NCBI RefSeq assembly: GCF_002127325.2
Contig: NC_035436.2
Span: 117,790,771 to 117,854,770, forward strand
From: Helianthus annuus
Lineage: Eukaryota > Streptophyta > Magnoliopsida > Asterales > Asteraceae
Direction: 5' to 3'
DNA: 64,000 nucleotides
A program made the position numbers and the translations under genes. Every line of letters begins with the position of its first letter. Position 1 is the stretch's first letter. Below, piece after piece: positions 50,098-57,980 of this stretch. Under the pieces are notes generated by a model. That model was given only the letters and a program-made list of their open reading frames with translations, searched no databases and was not told the DNA's origin.

Positions 50098-50670
50098 AGT
50101 CTACCCCCCTAAAGAGGTTTCGTCCTCGAAACCTTTCTTACGTAGTTTCTTAGGATTAACTCCATGGACTTAGTTTCAGTAATTACTTGAGCATTGCTCG
50201 CATTTCATAATCTTACCAGGACAGTATGGTAATGTCTCTGTTGGCTTTCAAACGTATGCGCCTTTCACGCGTAAGGCATCGTAGGCCGTAACTTTCGTCT
50301 TGTATTTCTTATTCTGGTCACTTATTTGACCGAGTTGTCTTCTTTTCACTCGATCATATTTATTCTTCAATATGTTTACTTCAATGTAATTTTTATATTG
50401 ACAGACGCTTTGTATAAGTCGTAACGCTATCTTGACTTTGAAAGGTTTTACCGGCTAGACTGTTTAGTCGCCGTCAATTTTTACCCTGTCATTCGGGTTT
50501 ATCTATTGCCAACCAGGCTCTTTGCGTGTTTTCTGATTTCATATCTCGTAACTCACGTTACGCCGTGGTTATATTCTGTGTCACTTTTGTGACCGTGATC
50601 ACATCACGTCTTGTTTAAATTTATGTCGACTTTTCATTCCGAAAATCTTTCTCTCGAATGTATAGCCTTG
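50098..50670 (-). other. G4 internal 3' end with PPT
   Basis: PPT on the minus strand at 50098-50117 (CTCTTTAGGGGGGTAGACT), preceded by a perfect inverted repeat GGTTTCG/CGAAACC. The remaining 550 bp show no ORF or pol motif. Continues at 57925-57972 after P1. TSD of P1 (CCTTG) at 50666-50670. Confidence 0.7.
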
Positions 50671-50921
50671 TGATGTGTGTAAAATGCAACATATAAATTA
50701 CATCAAATGAGGCATAAAACTAACCCTTTTTAAGTACTAATGTTGGAAAAAGAGTGTTTTTGTCTTTCTTTTGTATTTTCAGGATTAAATGAGCTCAAAT
50801 TAACAAAAGAAGCAAAAAGACAGCTAAATCTAACACAAATACAAGAAAAGGAACACAAGTGGATTGCCCAACCCCTCAACAGCATCATCCGAAGCAAAAC
50901 AAGAGAAGGCAGAAGACTGAA

Positions 50922-51165
50922 CACGCCCCGTGCTCAGCCAGCACGGGGCCGTGCCCAAGAAGCAGCAGAAAAGACAAACCTATAGAAGCTTCTATTGCCC
51001 ACCACGGGGCCGTGCCCAGTGAACAGGGGGCGTAGCGAAAGTACCGCAGGCGCATTAATTGTAATTGCGAATTACAATTAATGAGGAGAGAGATTGTCAG
51101 ACGGGCATGGGGCCGTGTGCAGCGGACACGGGGCCGTGCCCAGGCTTCTGTTCAGCCTATAAATA
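50922..51165 (+). promoter_or_regulatory. P1 5' LTR promoter module: three motif pairs and TATA
   Basis: Pairs: 50922-50953 (CACGCCCCGTG and CACGGGGCCGTG), 51003-51035 (second half degenerate), 51106-51138 (CATGGGGCCGTG and CACGGGGCCGTG). Each pair is separated by 9 bp, giving 20-21 bp start to start. TATAAATA at 51158-51165 begins 19 bp after the last pair. Confidence 0.85.
51053..51083. repeat. 31-bp inverted repeat in P1 LTR
   Basis: CATTAATTGTAATT, a GCG centre and its exact inverted copy: 14-bp perfect arms. Kept unchanged in the 3' LTR at 56608-56638. It lies between the second and third motif pairs. Confidence 0.9.
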
Positions 51166-52364
51166 GGAGTGCTTGGTTTCATTGCAACTCATCCCTTGGC
51201 ACACCACCTCTCTCACACTTCATCCACCACCCACCACCACCATAACACCATCATCCACCACCATCATCCATTGTCCATCATAGAGTGTGTGAGTCGTCTC
51301 GGGATCCAAGATTGATCGTAAGAGTTCTTGACAATCAAGGCCATGTTTGCCTAAGTCTCTTACATCACTTGGTGAAGACAAGTGTTTAGTATAATACTTT
51401 TTATTTTTAATCTTTTGCACTTTTTATTTGGTTTTGTATTAATGACTTTAATAACTAGTTGCTTATGTTGAAGGTGACTTTTCCTTATCGTTTGTCCGTG
51501 GTGTCTTGGCATTATTTTACTGTCTATATAAAATAAAAGATTTTCACCATTCATATCTCCACGGTCTATATGGAGGTATGTTGGCTACCTGGTCGGGGGT
51601 TAAGGGAACGGTTTGGTAAGGGTCTTGCCCTTGTTCAGCGTTTAGAGATCCTGCAAGGGACCTGGGTCAATTTTAGTAGGATCTCCTTCAATACCCATAG
51701 GTATTGGATGGCGGGGATCCAAACTCTTTGACCCCCTCATAAGTTAACTACTATTAATACTATAACCCGGCTATTTAGGACTGTATCCCTGCTGACTCAG
51801 ACTACTTAGTCCAGGGTAACGTCACCTCCAAAAGAGGGGCCTACCATAATTTGCATTAATAACTTAATACATTATGTTTCAATAATCCGACCCTTTAGGA
51901 TTGTATCCTTGCTGACTCAAACTACTGGGTTGAGGGTAACGTCGCCTTCAAAAGAGGGGCCTACTACAATAACTAAGATAATCTCTTAAACAAGTGCAAA
52001 AGTGCGAAAATAATCAAAGGTTATACTAATACACGAGTCGGATCCAAGTGATTCATCTTGTCTATCTGTTTTTATTTTTATTTTATTTTTCAGCATTTAG
52101 TTAGTTTTTATTTTCTTAGTTTAAAAATCTTTTCTAACATTTTGATTTGGTTAGACGTTGAGGATAAACCGGTACTAAAAGCTCTTGTGTCCTTGGACGA
52201 CCTCGGTATCTTACCAACGCTATACTACGTCCACGATGGGTGCACTTGCCCATATGTGTGTTTATTGTTAGTGAATATCGTGTTTTATAAATTTAAAACT
52301 TGGCTAAAAGTGTAAAAAGGGCTTAAAATATACATCTAAAACATATACACACTGACACGGATCA

Positions 52365-52660
52365 AGTTTTTGGCGCCGCTGCCGGGGAAACAAGGATTTT
52401 AAGAAAGTTAGGAATCAACGGCCTAATCATATATTTATTTTTTAGGATTTTCTTAGTTTTTCAGCCTCTGCAGAGCTCAGCACGGGCCGTGCCTGCTGAA
52501 CACACCCCCGTGCTCAATCATTGGAACTGGCAATCTTGTTTTAAGTCAGACAGTAAGCTGAACACGGGGCCGTGCTCACTCAACACGCCCCCGTGCCCAA
52601 GATTCACTTACTGAAAACAGAACCATTAGATCCCGATGGTTGGTAATTTCTGACACAAAC
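52365..52660 (+). other. P1 PBS and leader with two motif pairs
   Basis: PBS TGGCGCCGCTGCCGGGGA at 52371-52388, as used with Asp-type tRNA in Athila/Tat elements. Motif pairs near 52481-52512 and 52563-52595, in which the second half reads CACACCCCCGTG or CACGCCCCCGTG. Confidence 0.85.
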
Positions 52661-53317
52661 ATGAGTGATGGTAATTCTTTTTACTTTCGGCACTCTTATG
52701 GTACGTGGTGTTAATTATGTGGAGGCGAACATAAAGAATTAGAATGCTACTTTCTAAATTATAAGCCCCACTACATAGACCCACCGACTCCCTATAACCT
52801 TAAGAGGGGCGAAAGTAAAAATAATCACTATCTCTCCCTCGAATGCGCCCAGCCAGATATTCTAGGAGAAATGCTCCTCGACGAGTTATTTCAACTAGAA
52901 GATCTAATTCTAAATTGGTCAAAAGAGCTTAGGAAGGATTTCCTTGATTCACCCCAAGACGAAGACCATGAAGAAATGTTGGGATCGCATTCCAACAACC
53001 TCGTTGCTTCCAAAAATACCTTCGTACCTAGTGAAGACTTGGACGATAGTCGTCCCTGTGCCGATTGTGCCGTGAAGGACTTTCCATCGACTTCGTTCGG
53101 TGCATACATAGACCTGAGCGATTCGGCATATACCTTCTTTAACGAGAGCCCGGGAAAGGGTTGGACTTGTCCACCTAGAATAAAAATAAGAATTACCCTC
53201 ACCGACAACCTCTTGCGTTCTCGCCTTAGTCTAGGACAATTAAGGTATCTTAGGCACTTTGGGGTTGTTCCAACCAGTCAGGAACCACCCGATACGATTA
53301 AGTTCCTTAAAAACTAG
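52661..53317 (+). pseudogene. P1 ORF1, Cys/His-containing, one stop
   Basis: 219 codons from ATG 52661 with an in-frame TAA at 52712-52714, inside a Cys/His cluster (Cys, stop, LCGGEHKELEC) that looks like a degenerate zinc knuckle. After it come EMLLDELFQLEDLILNW, an acidic segment, CADCAVKD, SDSAYTFFNESPGKGW and IKIRITLTDNLLRSRLSLGQLRYLRHFGVVP, where the last helix is basic. No known family recognised. It might be a gag remnant of the Tat/Athila type. The frame after the stop is clean for 201 codons, so the stop may be recent or translation may start downstream. Confidence 0.55.
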
Positions 53318-53444
53318 ACAAACTTCATAACCAGCCTCTCGGCACGGGGCCGTGTCCAGCCAACACACCCCCGTGTTCACCAAAAGATTCGCTTCTGACG
53401 CTTACGTCAGAATACGGACAAACTGTGTCAGAATTTTATCTGCA

Positions 53445-53504
53445 CACGGGGCCGTGCCCACTGAACACGGGGCCGTGTCCAGGATGCTGTCGTTTTCTAT
53501 AAAT
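53445..53504 (+). promoter_or_regulatory. Internal promoter-like module in P1
   Basis: CACGGGGCCGTG at 53445-53456 and again at 53466-53477, spacer 9 bp, then 20 bp to TATAAAT at 53498. Layout matches the LTR module (19 bp to TATA). A further pair lies at 53343-53375 upstream. It precedes ORF2. Confidence 0.7.
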
Positions 53505-53577
53505 GCAGCCAAGAATTCTGCACATTTGGACCAACTTGGGACAGAGATTTGAAGGAATCTTCTCTCAACTATCCTAG

Positions 53578-53929
53578 GTAAGTTCTAAAAGAAAGTTCCA
53601 ACAAGCCATCTTGTCCTTTCCTCTTTTAACCATTTCCTTCTTCTTCATCTTTCTCCAAAAACCTCCATTGAAGTTTGAATTTTCAAGCTTTGTGGTAGGG
53701 ATTGATGAGTTTTGTTCAAGGAATCTTGGTAAAAATATGTTGTATAACATTGTTTTAAGTTACTAATGTTTAAAAAGACCCCACAAGTTCAGCAAATAAC
53801 TTAAAAATTAAAGTTTCCTTGCTCCAAAACTCTGCAGAAAGATGAACACGGGGCCGTGCTCAATGAGCACGGGGCCGTGTCCGGTCTACTGTTTCAGAGA
53901 ATAAACTATTTTCAGTTTATTTTTCATAG
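53578..53929 (+). other. Possible intron in the 5' leader of P1 ORF2
   Basis: Strong donor CCTAG followed by GTAAGT at 53578 and acceptor TTTTTCATAG ending at 53929, one base before the ORF2 ATG. 352 bp, T-rich, with a motif pair at 53845-53877 inside. Splicing is inferred. Confidence 0.45.
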
Positions 53930-53930
53930 A

Positions 53931-54337
53931 ATGTCGAGTGAAAACAGCGAAACATCTTCCGTGCTGAAGCTACACTTGTGCACTATGTAATAGCATTAAG
54001 GGAGGCTCTCGACGAAATGACGTCAGTAGAGGAGGTCCTAATCGACCATATTAACGATCTTACGGTGGGACTTGAGAGTAGCTTCCAAGAGATTAACCTC
54101 TTGCACCAGAGGTTAAATACTCTTGTAACACCCCCAATGGAACCGGTCCTTCCTCAACAGGATTGGAACCTGGCGCTCGAAGTTAACAACCCTACCAGGT
54201 GGGACGACATTCCGGCGGAACCTCCCATGGAGCACCAACAAGAGATCCCGGTGGAAATCACAACTCCTCAAACTAACGCTAATGAGCCCTCTTTTGTCCT
54301 TCCAAGGGAGGTGGAGGAGTGGCTCGCCGACATATGA
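53931..54337 (+). pseudogene. P1 ORF2, small coiled-coil protein
   Basis: ATG 53931 opens MSSENSETSS; a frameshift near 53960 leads to the frame that stays open to TGA at 54335-54337, about 120 codons. Residues include LREALDEMTSVEEVLIDHINDL and a following helix (LESSFQEINLLHQRLNTL), together a likely coiled coil, then a Pro/Glu-rich tail. No known family. It has its own TATA box, leader and possible intron. No DNA-binding domain is visible. Function unknown. Confidence 0.5.
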
Positions 54338-56205
54338 GGAAAGTCACACCCGGAAGAAGGAGTTCTATAAGGCCATATCTAACCAAGACTACTAGCTTCT
54401 TGGAAATTTTGCTAATTAAAATAATGTTTAGGCTAGAACTCCATGGTTTAATGCTTCTTTTCTCATCTAGCTTAATATAAATTTAGGACTATGTAAGATC
54501 TCTCTATGATTTTAATGGATGATGGTTTTAAGGTTTGAATGGTTCATAATAAATAAAACACACTCATGGTGGTAAGGGATGATAAGGGAAACGAGAAACA
54601 TAGCCCCATGCACAAGAACAAGGCCACACAACAACAATTTCTCCATTACAGTAAGTTCAGCACGGGTCGTGCCCAGCCAACATGGCCCCGTGCTGAACAC
54701 CCTGCAGAAAAATGCCCAGTTCAGGTAACTGGACACAGGTCGTGTTCACCATACACGCCCACGTGTCCAGGCTTCTGTCTCTTTTCTTTAATTATCATTA
54801 CTGGCACCTGAACACGTGACCGTGCCCGGTCACCACGGGGCCGTGCCCAGACTGCCAGTAACACAAATTTTTGCTTTTAACACCATGTTACACATTCAAT
54901 CAACCTAAAAATTTATTTTTGGGACACATTGAGGACAATGTGTAATTTAAGTGTGGGGGGGATGCTAAAACCTTGAATTTTGCAAGTCCTAATAACAAGC
55001 CTTACACAAAACTCTATTGGAACCGCTAATCACCCCAAATTTTTTTTAAAAAAAAATTCATTTTTTTTTATTTGTCTAAAGTTTAAGTTGGGAATTCTAA
55101 GACTAACAAGGTTATATTTTTACAAATTTACAACCGATAGCGTCGTGATAAAAAGAACCAACATAAGAAAATTATGAAACGGCATGACAAGCTTAGTTAA
55201 AATTCGATTATATATACTTGATCACACAAAAAAAACCCATTCCCACAAAAAGTGAGTTTTGAGCCTTTATTGAGCATATAAATATACATCTTTAAGCTAA
55301 ATGCTCATTTTTCGTTTCTTGTGTGAATAGCCGCTTGGTTCTTACGACTCTAGAACTTGCCACGACAATTCATTCCCGGTCCTTACCAACTTAAACCCAA
55401 GTAAGTAAATGATGGAGGCATTAGGACTAACCCTTTTTCTTTCAAAACCATTATTTTTATTTTTCTTTTCACCTACCCAAAAACTCCCCCTAGTTAACCC
55501 CCTTGAGCCTAAACCTTTTCATTTCTTTACCCTAAAACCTTTATACCCACCAAAAACCCTTTTTTATTTTTACCCTTTATTTTAGTAACAAGCTCGGTTT
55601 TCGTGTGACTTTTCCTAAAAAAAAAAAAAACAATGAAGTTAGAAATAAACAAGCAAAGCTCTTAAAACAAAAGCTTGTTTGAAGAAATACTTCATTAAGA
55701 ATAAAAAGTCACTAAAACAAAATGTTTTACGAAAACCGACGCTTTTTACGCTTTTCGCCCTTTACTAACCACTAACCCAACTACCCACCTTTAGCCCAAG
55801 TCTTTACCCAAAAAGTCCTCTTGATATTCACAAAGGTAAAAAGTTAAAAAGGAGGAGGATTGATCGCTTGGCAAGCCTATGGTAGGAATAAGTTCCATGC
55901 CGCTCTCGAGTGATTCACTAAAAAAATACACCTTCGGCCGAGTGTGAGTGATTTCTCCCGTGAGGTATGTGAACTTGTATATAAATGGAATTTTAAAAAG
56001 GCATGCTATGCCCAAATAAGTAATTTCTCTTATGAAACAATTCTAAATAAATCATAACGAATAGGATTGTAAATAAATAAAAATAAAACCCAATAAAAGT
56101 CTTGGATTCCTGACACTCTATGACAAGCCAAAACCTTCTCTTCTACCCATTCCATTTGGGAGTGTAAGCCACATATTAAAGAGTTTTGCTTGAGGACAAG
56201 CAAAA
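54338..56205 (+). other. P1 3' internal region, non-coding, with motif pairs
   Basis: Motif pairs at about 54661-54692, 54734-54765 and 54811-54843, the middle one degenerate. A PPT-like GAGGACAATG ... TTTAAGTGTGGGGGGG is at 54931-54961. After it come 1.2 kb of AT-rich DNA with T and A runs and no ORF of note. No pol. Confidence 0.75.
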
Positions 56206-56224
56206 ATTCAAGTGTGGGGATATT
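56206..56224 (+). other. P1 polypurine tract
   Basis: AATTCAAGTGTGGGGATAT directly before the 3' LTR, preceded by GAGGACAAGC at 56192. The same arrangement occurs at 54931-54961. Confidence 0.85.
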
Positions 56225-57919
56225 TGATGTGTGTAAAATGCAACATATAAATTACATCAAATGAGGCATAAAACTAACCCTTTTTAAGTACTAATGTTGG
56301 AAAAAGAGTGTTTTTGTCTTCCTTTTGTATTTTCAGGATTAAATGAGCTCAAATTAACAAAAGAAGCAAAAAGACAGCTAAATCTAACACAAATACAAGA
56401 AAAGGAACACAAGTGGATTGCCCGACCCCTCAACAGCATCATCCGAAGCAAAACAAGAGAAGGCAGAAGACTGAACACGCCCCGTGCTCAGCCAGCACGG
56501 GGCCGTGCCCAAGAAGCAGCAGAAAAGACAAACCTATAGAAGCTTCTATTGCCCACCACGGGGCCGTGCCCAGTGAACACGGGGGCGTGGCGAAAGTACT
56601 GCAGGCGCATTAATTGTAATTGCGAATTACAATTAATGAGGAGAGAGATTGTCAGACGGGCACGGGGCCGTGTGCAGCGGACACGGGGCCGTGCCCAGGC
56701 TTCTGTTCAGCCTTTAAATAGGAGTGCTTGGTTTCATTGCAACTCATCCCTTAGCACACCACCTCTCTCACACTTCATCCACCACCCACCACCACCATAA
56801 CACCATCATCCACCACCATCATCCATTGTCCATCATAGAGTGTGTGAGTCATCTCGGGATCCAAGATTGATCGTAAGAGTTCTTGACAATCAAGGCCATG
56901 TTTGCCTAAGTCTCTTACATCACTTGGTGAAGACAAGTGTTTAGTATAATACTTTTTATTTTTAATCTTTTGCACTTTTTATTTGGTTTTGTATTAATGA
57001 CTTTAATAACTAGTTGCTTATGTTGAAGGTGACTTTTCCTTATCGTTTGTCCGTGGTGTCTTGGCATTATTTTACTGTCTATATAAATTAAAAGATTTTC
57101 ACCATTCATATATCCACGGTCTATATGGAGGTGTGTTGGCTACATGGTCGGGGGTTAAGGGAACGGTTTGGTAAGGGTCTTGCCCTTGTTCAACGTTTAG
57201 AGGTCCTGCAAGGGACCTGGGTCAATTTTCGTAGGATCTCCTTCAATACCCATAGGTATTGGATGGCGGGGATCCAAACTCTTTGACCCCCTCATAAGTT
57301 AACTACTATTCATACTATAACCCGGCTATTTAGGACTGTATCCCTGCTGACTCAGACTACTTAGTCGAGGGTAACGTCACCTCCAAAAGAGGGGCCTACC
57401 ATAATTTGCATTAATAACTTAATTCATTATCTTTCAATAATCTGACCCTTTAGGATTGTATCCTTGCTGACTCAAACTACTGGGTTGAGGGTAACCTCGC
57501 CTTCAAAAGAGGGGCCTACTACAATAACTAAGATAATCTCTTAAACAAGTGCAAAAGTGCGAAAATAATCAAAGGTTATACTAATACACGAGTCGGATCC
57601 AAGTGATTCATCTTGTCTATCTATTTTTATTTTTATTTTATTTTTCAGCATTTAGTTAGTTTTTATTTTCTTAGTTTAAAAATCTTTTCTAACATTTTGA
57701 TTTGGTTAGACGTTGAGGATAAACCGGTACTAAAAGCTCTTGTGTCCTTGGACGACCTCGGTATGTTACCAACACTATACTACGTCCATGATGGGTGCAC
57801 TTGCCCATATGTGTGTTTATTGTTAGTGAATATCGTGTTTTATAAATTTAAAACTTGGCTAAAAGTGTAAAAAGGGCTTAAAATATACATCTAAAACATA
57901 TACACACTGACACGCATCA
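56225..57919 (+). repeat. P1 3' LTR
   Basis: 1695 bp. Differs from the 5' LTR at scattered sites; several lie in the motif pairs. Followed by TSD CCTTG. Confidence 0.93.
56476..56720 (+). promoter_or_regulatory. P1 3' LTR motif pairs with altered TATA
   Basis: Pairs at 56476-56507, 56557-56590 and 56661-56693, spacer 9 bp in each. The last two are better preserved than in the 5' LTR. The TATA box is changed to TTTAAATA (56713-56720). Confidence 0.8.
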
Positions 57920-57980
57920 CCTTGCACCTATCGGTGTTAAGATCTATATTCTTTGATATTAATCATTTTCTGAACTCTTC

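What the first reader, a model, noticed from the sequence alone, without database searches (positions are those of the whole stretch)
50671..57919. P1 is studded with paired CACGGGGCCGTG sites, always with a 9-bp spacer
I count 14 pairs: three in each LTR and eight inside. Halves vary (CACGCCCCCGTG, CATGGGGCCGTG, CACGTGACCGTG), yet the spacer is 9 bp in every pair, often CCCAGTGAA, TCCAGCCAA or similar. When one half loses a base (11-mer) the spacer still stays 9. Pairs lie in non-coding segments only and skip both ORFs. This is the densest and most regular signal in the window and resembles an operator array for a dimeric or tetrameric protein.
Basis: seen in the sequence. Interest (0 to 1): 0.88.

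Follow-up and report, generated by a model that had tools for sequence, protein, structure and literature searches.

The report
Palindrome boxes in sunflower-type retrotransposon promoter
A jumping gene from a sunflower-like plant carries 14 pairs of a short mirror-symmetric DNA box, some placed just in front of its promoter signals; they look like switch sites similar to those known in a different class of plant jumping genes, and the striking fixed gap exists because each pair is a small repeat of a 21-letter unit.

Summary
P1 (50671-57919) is an LTR retrotransposon copy without pol, from a Helianthus-like genome. It carries 14 pairs of CACG-N4-CGTG-type boxes (3+8+3), each with a 9-bp spacer; no such pair lies elsewhere in the window. 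The fixed spacer has a simpler cause: a pair is a tandem repeat of a 21-bp unit. In 29 Helianthus protein records reading through the LTR, 23 have two units at the third LTR pair, 5 have one and 1 has three. At internal pair 6, two of four records imply a 10-bp spacer. The pairs do not evolve more slowly than the rest of the LTR (3/97 vs 24/1597, p=0.20).

Best reading: cis-regulatory palindromic boxes. LTR pairs 1-3 lie in U3, the last 19 bp before a TATA box; pair 7 lies 20 bp before an internal TATA-like site ahead of ORF2. The pairs hold 26% of P1's CpGs. This closely resembles the RM boxes of Sireviruses (Ty1/copia; PMC2829016), but P1 has an Athila-type primer site and a 21-bp phased pair arrangement not described in what I read. 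Function is untested. An element-encoded (VANC-like) binder is possible, not shown.

The parts
50671..52364 (+). 5' LTR (TG...CA)
   Evidence: aligned with 3' LTR, 26 substitutions and 1 indel in about 1694 bp; TSD CCTTG at 50666-50670 and 57920-57924
56225..57919 (+). 3' LTR
50922..50953 (.). pair 1 (U3)
   Evidence: 11-mer + 9 + 12-mer
51003..51034 (.). pair 2 (U3), second box decayed in this LTR
51106..51138 (.). pair 3 (U3), ends 19 bp before TATA
51158..51165 (+). TATA-like box of the LTR (CCTATAAATAGG)
   Evidence: the codons over it (I-N-R) are unchanged in 28 of 29 relatives; the 3' LTR of this copy reads TTTAAATA
52371..52388 (+). primer binding site TGGCGCCGCTGCCGGGGA, tRNA-Asp type, 6 bp after the LTR
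   Evidence: placement compared with a PMC1142308 passage; the tRNA-Asp letters are recalled
52481..52512 (.). pair 4 (5' leader)
52563..52595 (.). pair 5 (5' leader)
52661..53317 (+). ORF1 (one in-frame stop in this copy); C-X2-C-X3-H-X4-C segment in 6 of 7 relatives that have the N-terminus
53343..53375 (.). pair 6 (between ORFs)
   Evidence: also in P0001 and P0047 with 7-codon period
53445..53477 (.). pair 7 (between ORFs)
   Evidence: also in P0001 and P0047
53498..53504 (+). internal TATA-like site 20 bp after pair 7
53847..53879 (.). pair 8 (before ORF2)
53978..54337 (+). ORF2 (119 aa, no Pfam match)
54661..54692 (.). pair 9 (after ORF2)
54734..54765 (.). pair 10 (after ORF2)
54813..54845 (.). 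pair 11 (after ORF2)
56210..56220 (+). polypurine tract AAGTGTGGGGA before the 3' LTR (second PPT-like copy at about 54949-54961)
   Evidence: read
56476..56507 (.). pair 12 (U3 of 3' LTR)
56557..56589 (.). pair 13 (U3 of 3' LTR)
56661..56693 (.). pair 14 (U3 of 3' LTR)

Best explanation
P1 is a non-autonomous LTR retrotransposon, of Athila type by its primer site, from a Helianthus-like genome, and the pairs are cis-regulatory palindromic boxes in its promoter-proximal and other non-coding DNA. The unit is about 21 bp: a dyad of about 20 bp (TGAA-like arm, CACGG-NN-CCGTG, YYCA arm) plus one base. Two abutting units give the apparent 12-9-12 'pair' (the 9-bp spacer is the outer arm of one dyad, one base, and the outer arm of the next), and put two dimer sites two helical turns apart on the same face of the DNA. 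In the LTR, three pairs lie 251-468 bp after the LTR start and 19 bp or more before a TATA-like box, where host transcription factors would bind and drive the genomic transcript; a pair-plus-TATA arrangement ahead of ORF2 may serve as an internal promoter. Units multiplied by tandem duplication and by dispersal of longer modules inside the element, and decay in part through CpG loss. Shown: anatomy, unit repetition, position, CpG enrichment, dyad symmetry. Inferred: protein binding, promoter activity, transcription start, host identity of the binder.
For: 14 of 14 pairs with spacer 9, none outside P1. Position: pair 3 ends 19 bp before TATAAATA in U3, pair 7 ends 20 bp before TATAAAT internally. 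Flanks: downstream flanks of pairs 7 and 10 match over 26 columns through the TATA position (score 15) and those of 3 and 10 over 12 bases (score 12; 99th percentile of shuffles 10; 4 of 231 comparisons scored 11 or more); overall flank similarity exceeds shuffles (p 0.009 downstream, 0 of 1000 upstream). Dyad symmetry extends 4 bp beyond each box (39 of 88 matches; random arms 22.9 and within-arm shuffles 20.7, 0 of 5000 as high in either), with no own-arm covariation (permutation p 0.77), which fits protein dyads better than RNA stems. 53 of 203 CpGs of P1 lie in the 457 bp of pairs; the U3 cluster has GC 0.58-0.59 and CpG o/e 0.89-0.92 against 0.14 in the LTR before it and 0.64 after it. 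Close parallel in Sirevirus RM boxes: CGG-CCG dyads, 8-32 copies, 200-400 bp into the LTR, CpG islands, shortly before a TATA box, extra cluster upstream of an extra ORF (PMC2829016). The boxes of LTR pair 3 are seen, as peptides, at the same place in records of H. annuus, H. anomalus and H. debilis.
Against: No binding or expression data. Pairs are not slower-evolving than the rest of the LTR (3 of 97 vs 24 of 1597 sites, p=0.20), although CpG density would make them mutate faster. 8 of the 11 independent pairs are internal, and only 1 of those 8 (pair 7) has a TATA[AT]A[AT] match within 40 bp after it. The TATA-like box of this copy's 3' LTR is altered. Unit number varies from 1 to 3 among copies, so the pair is not required. 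A 10-bp spacer is inferred in P0005 and P0014. ORF-avoidance is not significant. Arm matches in direct, non-symmetric orientation are also raised (32 of 88), and of 24 column orders the true one ranks second (40 vs 39).
Confidence: 0.55

Rival explanations
1. A neutral GC-rich minisatellite: a 21-bp unit that slips during reverse transcription or replication and was spread inside the element by template switching, with no function; the constant spacer is only the repeat period.
For: Copy number 1, 2 or 3 with indels of exactly seven residues (21 bp) at pair 3 among 29 LTR relatives; substitution rate in pairs not reduced; flanks of several modules alike, so dispersal by duplication.
Against: Most records (23 of 29) keep two units; eleven separate sites in one element all retain the unit although CpG-rich DNA decays fast; dyad symmetry extends beyond the box; the position just before two TATA-like boxes and the match to Sirevirus RM architecture are unexplained.
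Confidence: 0.21
2. An RNA-level element: the pairs form 12-bp stems with a 9-nt loop (and larger fold-backs between pairs) that act in packaging, or are diced into small RNAs and so mark the element for silencing.
For: Four regions with pairs fold better than dinucleotide shuffles (z -4.80, -4.69, -2.08, -3.66); modules 9, 10 and 11 have complementary outer flanks (flank-shuffle z -5.06, -2.81, -2.89); maize Sirevirus palindrome clusters are small-RNA hotspots (passages of PMC5311732 and PMC10760457).
Against: A box that is its own palindrome folds well whatever its role. Own-flank pairing beats other-flank pairing only marginally (p 0.03-0.24 with a common core, 0.23-0.79 without; 0.53 by alignment score) and outer arms show no covariation. 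If transcription starts after the U3 TATA box (inferred), three of the eleven pairs reach the transcript only through the 3' LTR.
Confidence: 0.13
3. An anti-silencing array: a protein made by this family or its autonomous partner binds the boxes and keeps the element unmethylated, as VANC proteins do for VANDAL transposons.
For: Within the window a P1-specific short motif in tandem, in non-coding DNA, dense in CpG, as described for VANC targets (PMC5735166 passages); ORF1 has 17 homologues, 7 of them named Helianthus proteins and 10 from ENA contigs without a name, and a C-X2-C-X3-H-X4-C segment in 6 of 7 with the N-terminus; a sunflower Athila group with the highest GC shows a methylation drop in its LTRs (PMC12844716 passages).
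Against: ORF1 (148-aa open part) and ORF2 match no Pfam model; the structure prediction for ORF1 was uninformative (pLDDT 31.7); no link between P1 and that Athila group was tested; no methylation data were available.
Confidence: 0.08

Closest known systems
Sirevirus repeated-motif (RM) boxes (Bousios et al. 2010, PMC2829016; passages and all of section 9 seen)
   Same: Palindromic box with CGG-CCG core in many copies, clustered 200-400 bp into the LTR, CpG-rich, shortly before a TATA box, with a further cluster in the internal region before an extra ORF.
   Different: Sireviruses are Ty1/copia with other box sequences; P1 has a tRNA-Asp-type PBS. P1 boxes come as 21-bp phased pairs and also lie in the 5' leader and after ORF2; such pairing is not mentioned in the passages and section I read.
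Tnt1 BII boxes and other tandem U3 activator boxes (PMC3316501 passages, rest recalled)
   Same: Short boxes in U3 that bind defence-induced DNA-binding factors; tandem repetition with variable copy number (recalled).
   Different: Different sequence and host, Ty1/copia, boxes confined to the LTR (recalled).
VANC-VANDAL anti-silencing system (PMC5735166, passages)
   Different: VANDALs are DNA transposons; 9-base motif; trans factor shown there, none shown here.
[quoted passage not shown]
   Same: Family-specific tandem repeats in plant gypsy elements of the same superclade.
   Different: Arrays of three or more repeats between pol and 3' LTR were counted there; here mostly two-unit palindromic boxes at many sites including U3.

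Membership tests
Sirevirus RM boxes | dyad-symmetric box with CGG-CCG signature | tested here: met
   11 of 22 boxes are CACGGGGCCGTG, i.e. CGG-GG-CCG inside CA...TG arms; the other 11 lose the signature in part or whole
Sirevirus RM boxes | at least 8 copies per element | tested here: met
   28 boxes in the element, 22 counting one LTR
Sirevirus RM boxes | LTR cluster starting 200-400 bp after the LTR start, shortly before a TATA box | tested here: met
   starts at +251, ends 19 bp before TATA
Sirevirus RM boxes | clusters are CpG islands | tested here: met
   U3 cluster 217-218 bp, GC 0.58-0.59, o/e 0.89-0.92; CpGplot itself not run
Sirevirus RM boxes | carried by a Sirevirus (Ty1/copia) element | tested here: not met
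   PBS is tRNA-Asp type 6 bp after the LTR, whereas most copia groups use tRNA-Met (PMC6317226 passage); no RT domain to place
Athila lineage (Ty3/gypsy) | PBS matching tRNA-Asp about 5 bp after the LTR | tested here: met
   TGGCGCCGCTGCCGGGGA at 52371, 6 bp after CA; one mismatch to the recalled plant tRNA-Asp complement; placement similar to Calypso and Diaspora (PMC1142308 passage)
Athila lineage (Ty3/gypsy) | RT/RH/INT phylogeny | not testable with these tools
   no pol-sized ORF in P1; ORF1 part and ORF2 have no Pfam match
Non-autonomous LTR element (LARD-like) | LTRs, TSD, PBS and PPT present, no pol | tested here: met
   longest listed ORF in P1 is 148 aa
VANC-type anti-silencing target | motif bound by an element-encoded protein that removes methylation | not testable with these tools
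   no methylation or binding data; candidate ORF1 only
   29 LTR records: 23 two-unit, 5 one-unit, 1 three-unit; pair 6 spacer inferred 10 bp in P0005 and P0014

The most novel reading that the evidence does not exclude
A Ty3/gypsy (Athila-type) family of Helianthus has independently evolved an array of phased double palindromes, bound on one DNA face by a dimeric factor that the family or its autonomous partner encodes, which keeps CpG-rich boxes open against methylation and drives both the LTR promoter and an internal promoter: an LTR-retrotransposon counterpart of VANC anti-silencing.
Probability: 0.08. Interest if true: 0.82.

Novelty: new variant of a known kind. Interest (0 to 1): 0.48.

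Why it matters
Palindromic CpG-rich promoter boxes were described as specific to Sireviruses within a Ty1/copia set (PMC2829016). A very similar layout in an element with an Athila-type primer site suggests that unrelated plant retrotransposons converge on the same promoter design, or that host factors favour it. The two-turn phasing and the 1-3 unit variation make a direct test easy, and the pair-plus-TATA arrangement before ORF2 gives a concrete candidate for an internal promoter in a plant retroelement.

Tried and rejected
Rejected: coding origin (the 21-bp period is 7 codons, but boxes are read in different frames in the ORFs and lie in U3; not tested formally). Rejected as main reading: pure RNA hairpin. 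Weakened: selection on a fixed spacer. Led nowhere: pattern scan of viral contigs (0 hits); the one prokaryote hit is a cyanobacterial repeat of its own; literature scan for the box letters found only two papers, unrelated by title; Pfam scan of the open part of ORF1 and of ORF2 (0 hits); structure prediction of an ORF1 relative (pLDDT 31.7), so no fold search was made; protein search with the P0001 tail found only itself and P0047. Searches in which I saw no report of such boxes in a gypsy element: (result listings; held library only). Limit: no sunflower DNA was available; relatives were seen only as predicted peptides clustered at 90% identity and found by shared words, so frame-breaking spacer changes are under-seen and spacers of 10 bp are inferred from codons.
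Full report
Observation. [quoted passage not shown] A scan for two CACG-N-CGTG boxes with any spacer of 4-15 found 14 pairs inside P1, all with spacer 9, and 9 chance-level pairs outside; with overlaps allowed, 12 candidates outside, none with spacer 9. All 18 exact CACGN4CGTG sites of the 64-kb window are in P1; a first-order Markov model of P1 gives a mean of 0.02. Since the LTRs are copies, there are 11 independent pairs.

What the spacer is. Three results show that the pair is a tandem repeat of a 21-bp unit. First, the four bases after a box share the consensus YYCA (22 boxes: Y 21, Y 21, C 19, A 19) and the four before a box are TGAA-like (T 15, G 12, A 16, A 14), so each box is part of a dyad of about 20 bp, and two abutting dyads leave 4+1+4 = 9 bases between the 12-mers. 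The arm symmetry is 39 of 88, against 22.9 for random P1 arms and 20.7 for within-arm shuffles, none of 5000 draws as high in either. Against this: direct-orientation matching is 32 of 88, and one of the 24 column orders does slightly better than the true one (40 vs 39). Second, tandem repeat search reports pair 7, alone of the 14 at its score threshold, as a period-21 array. Third, a protein search with the open frame that runs through LTR pairs 2 and 3 returned 29 records, all labelled Helianthus annuus, H. anomalus or H. debilis. At pair 3, 23 of the 29 have two units seven residues apart, 5 (P0020, P0025, P0040, P0043, P0044) have one, and 1 (P0035) has three; the length differences there are exactly seven residues. 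Pair 2 is visible in P0019 and P0025 and keeps the seven-residue period.

Spacer in the internal pairs. Four records read through pair 6. P0001 and P0047 have the seven-codon period at pairs 6 and 7, and 34 codons (102 bases) from pair to pair as in the window. In P0005 and P0014 the codons fit boxes that start 22 bases apart, so a 10-bp spacer (my reading). Thus 9 is the rule, not a law. Only peptides were available, so changes that break the frame are under-counted.

Constraint. Between the two LTRs of P1, 3 of 97 sites in pairs (one of them the indel) and 24 of 1597 elsewhere differ (Fisher p 0.20). Power is low, and CpG-rich boxes should mutate faster (CATG and CACA variants look like CpG decay). 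Avoidance of the ORFs has chance probability 0.076.

Surroundings. LTR pairs 1-3 start 251 bp into the LTR; pair 3 ends 19 bp before TATAAATA at 51158, which I take as the U3 promoter; the codons over it are I-N-R in 28 of 29 relatives, though the 3' LTR of this copy has a changed base there. Pair 7 ends 20 bp before TATAAAT at 53498, ahead of ORF2. It is the only one of the 8 internal pairs with a TATA[AT]A[AT] match within 40 bp after it. Flanks: in 231 flank comparisons 4 scored 11 or more against a shuffled 99th percentile of 10: pairs 7/10 downstream (15, over 26 columns through the TATA position), 3/10 downstream (12), 1 reversed/10 (12) and 5/6 downstream (11); overall, downstream and upstream flanks resemble each other more than shuffles (p 0.009 and 0 of 1000). 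So at least some modules were copied as longer pieces. Pairs contain 53 of the 203 CpGs of P1 in 457 of 7249 bases. The U3 cluster has GC 0.58-0.59 and CpG o/e 0.89-0.92, the 251 bp before it 0.34 and 0.14, the rest of the LTR 0.38 and 0.64.

RNA reading. Regions with pairs fold better than dinucleotide shuffles (z -4.80, -4.69, -2.08, -3.66), but a palindromic box does so by itself. If flanks had co-evolved as stems, a flank should pair best with its own partner: with a common core p was 0.03, 0.05, 0.08 and 0.24 for flanks of 12, 20, 28 and 36 bases; without core 0.23, 0.36, 0.43 and 0.79. An alignment-score version gave p 0.53. Modules 9-11 have clearly complementary flanks (z -5.06, -2.81, -2.89), 5 and 8 weakly (-1.92, -1.80), the other six not. 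I keep RNA structure as a minor rival.

The element's proteins. ORF1 (52661-53317, one in-frame stop in this copy) has 17 homologues: 6 named from H. annuus, 1 from H. anomalus and 10 from ENA contigs without a name; 6 of the 7 relatives that include the N-terminus carry a C-X2-C-X3-H-X4-C segment, which resembles gag zinc knuckles (recalled). Neither the open part of ORF1 nor ORF2 hits Pfam, and the model of an ORF1 relative is uninformative. No pol-sized ORF is listed, so P1 is non-autonomous. The PBS type and its place resemble Calypso and Diaspora of the Athila lineage (PMC1142308 passages; tRNA letters recalled). The species of the window was not established beyond its likeness to Helianthus records.

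Comparison. The closest known thing is the repeated motif of Sireviruses (PMC2829016, passages and the whole of section 9): palindromic boxes with a CGG-CCG core, at least 8 per element, in the upper LTR 200-400 bp from its start, forming CpG islands shortly before a TATA box, with more copies upstream of the env-like gene; the authors call it Sirevirus-specific within their Ty1/copia set and suspect regulation, perhaps an internal promoter. P1 meets the sequence and position features but not the host lineage. Pairing at 21 bp is not mentioned in what I read. Later work, seen only through citing passages, reports that maize Sirevirus palindromes are small-RNA hotspots. VANC targets in VANDAL transposons (PMC5735166 passages) are the parallel for the bold reading. 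A 2026 sunflower study reports an Athila group with a drop of methylation in its LTRs and the highest GC of its clusters, and itself raises the VANC parallel (PMC12844716 passages); whether P1 belongs there is untested.

Verdict. A real and regular feature, best read as palindromic promoter boxes of an Athila-like non-autonomous element, of a kind known from Sireviruses but new to me in this lineage and in this phased-pair form. The fixed spacer, the most striking claim, follows mainly from the repeat unit. Binding, promoter activity and the binder are inferred.

Noticed in passing
L001 1914-1946: The only match to the pair pattern in the prokaryote genome collection, in the cyanobacterium Brasilonema bromeliae, is itself a 21-bp tandem unit with the reverse-complement box and a 9-bp spacer, in GC-rich repeat DNA; probably coincidence or convergence of palindromic repeats.
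   Followed up: partly
window 51054-51082 and 53393-53412: Between LTR pairs 2 and 3 lies a perfect AT-rich inverted repeat (ATTAATTGTAATT-GCG-AATTACAATTAAT); a palindrome (TTCTGACG-CTTA-CGTCAGAA) lies between pairs 6 and 7.
   Followed up: partly
window 50922-51138: Pair 1 with its flank resembles the reverse complement of pair 3 with its flank (CAGAAG...CTTCTG), so the U3 cluster is a large imperfect inverted repeat (fold of the 3' LTR copy).
   Followed up: partly
window 54949-54961 and 56210-56220: Two polypurine-tract-like sequences (AAGTGTGGGG...), one well before the 3' LTR.
   Followed up: no
window 52661-53317: The ORF1 family recurs in named Helianthus proteins and in short ENA contigs that may be transcript assemblies (not checked), with a zinc-knuckle-like segment; function unknown.
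   Followed up: partly
window 14470-46200: Families of large direct repeats with up to four copies (61-100% identical to the reference copies), with 52-55 bp tandem arrays among them; a separate repeated region of the window.
   Followed up: no
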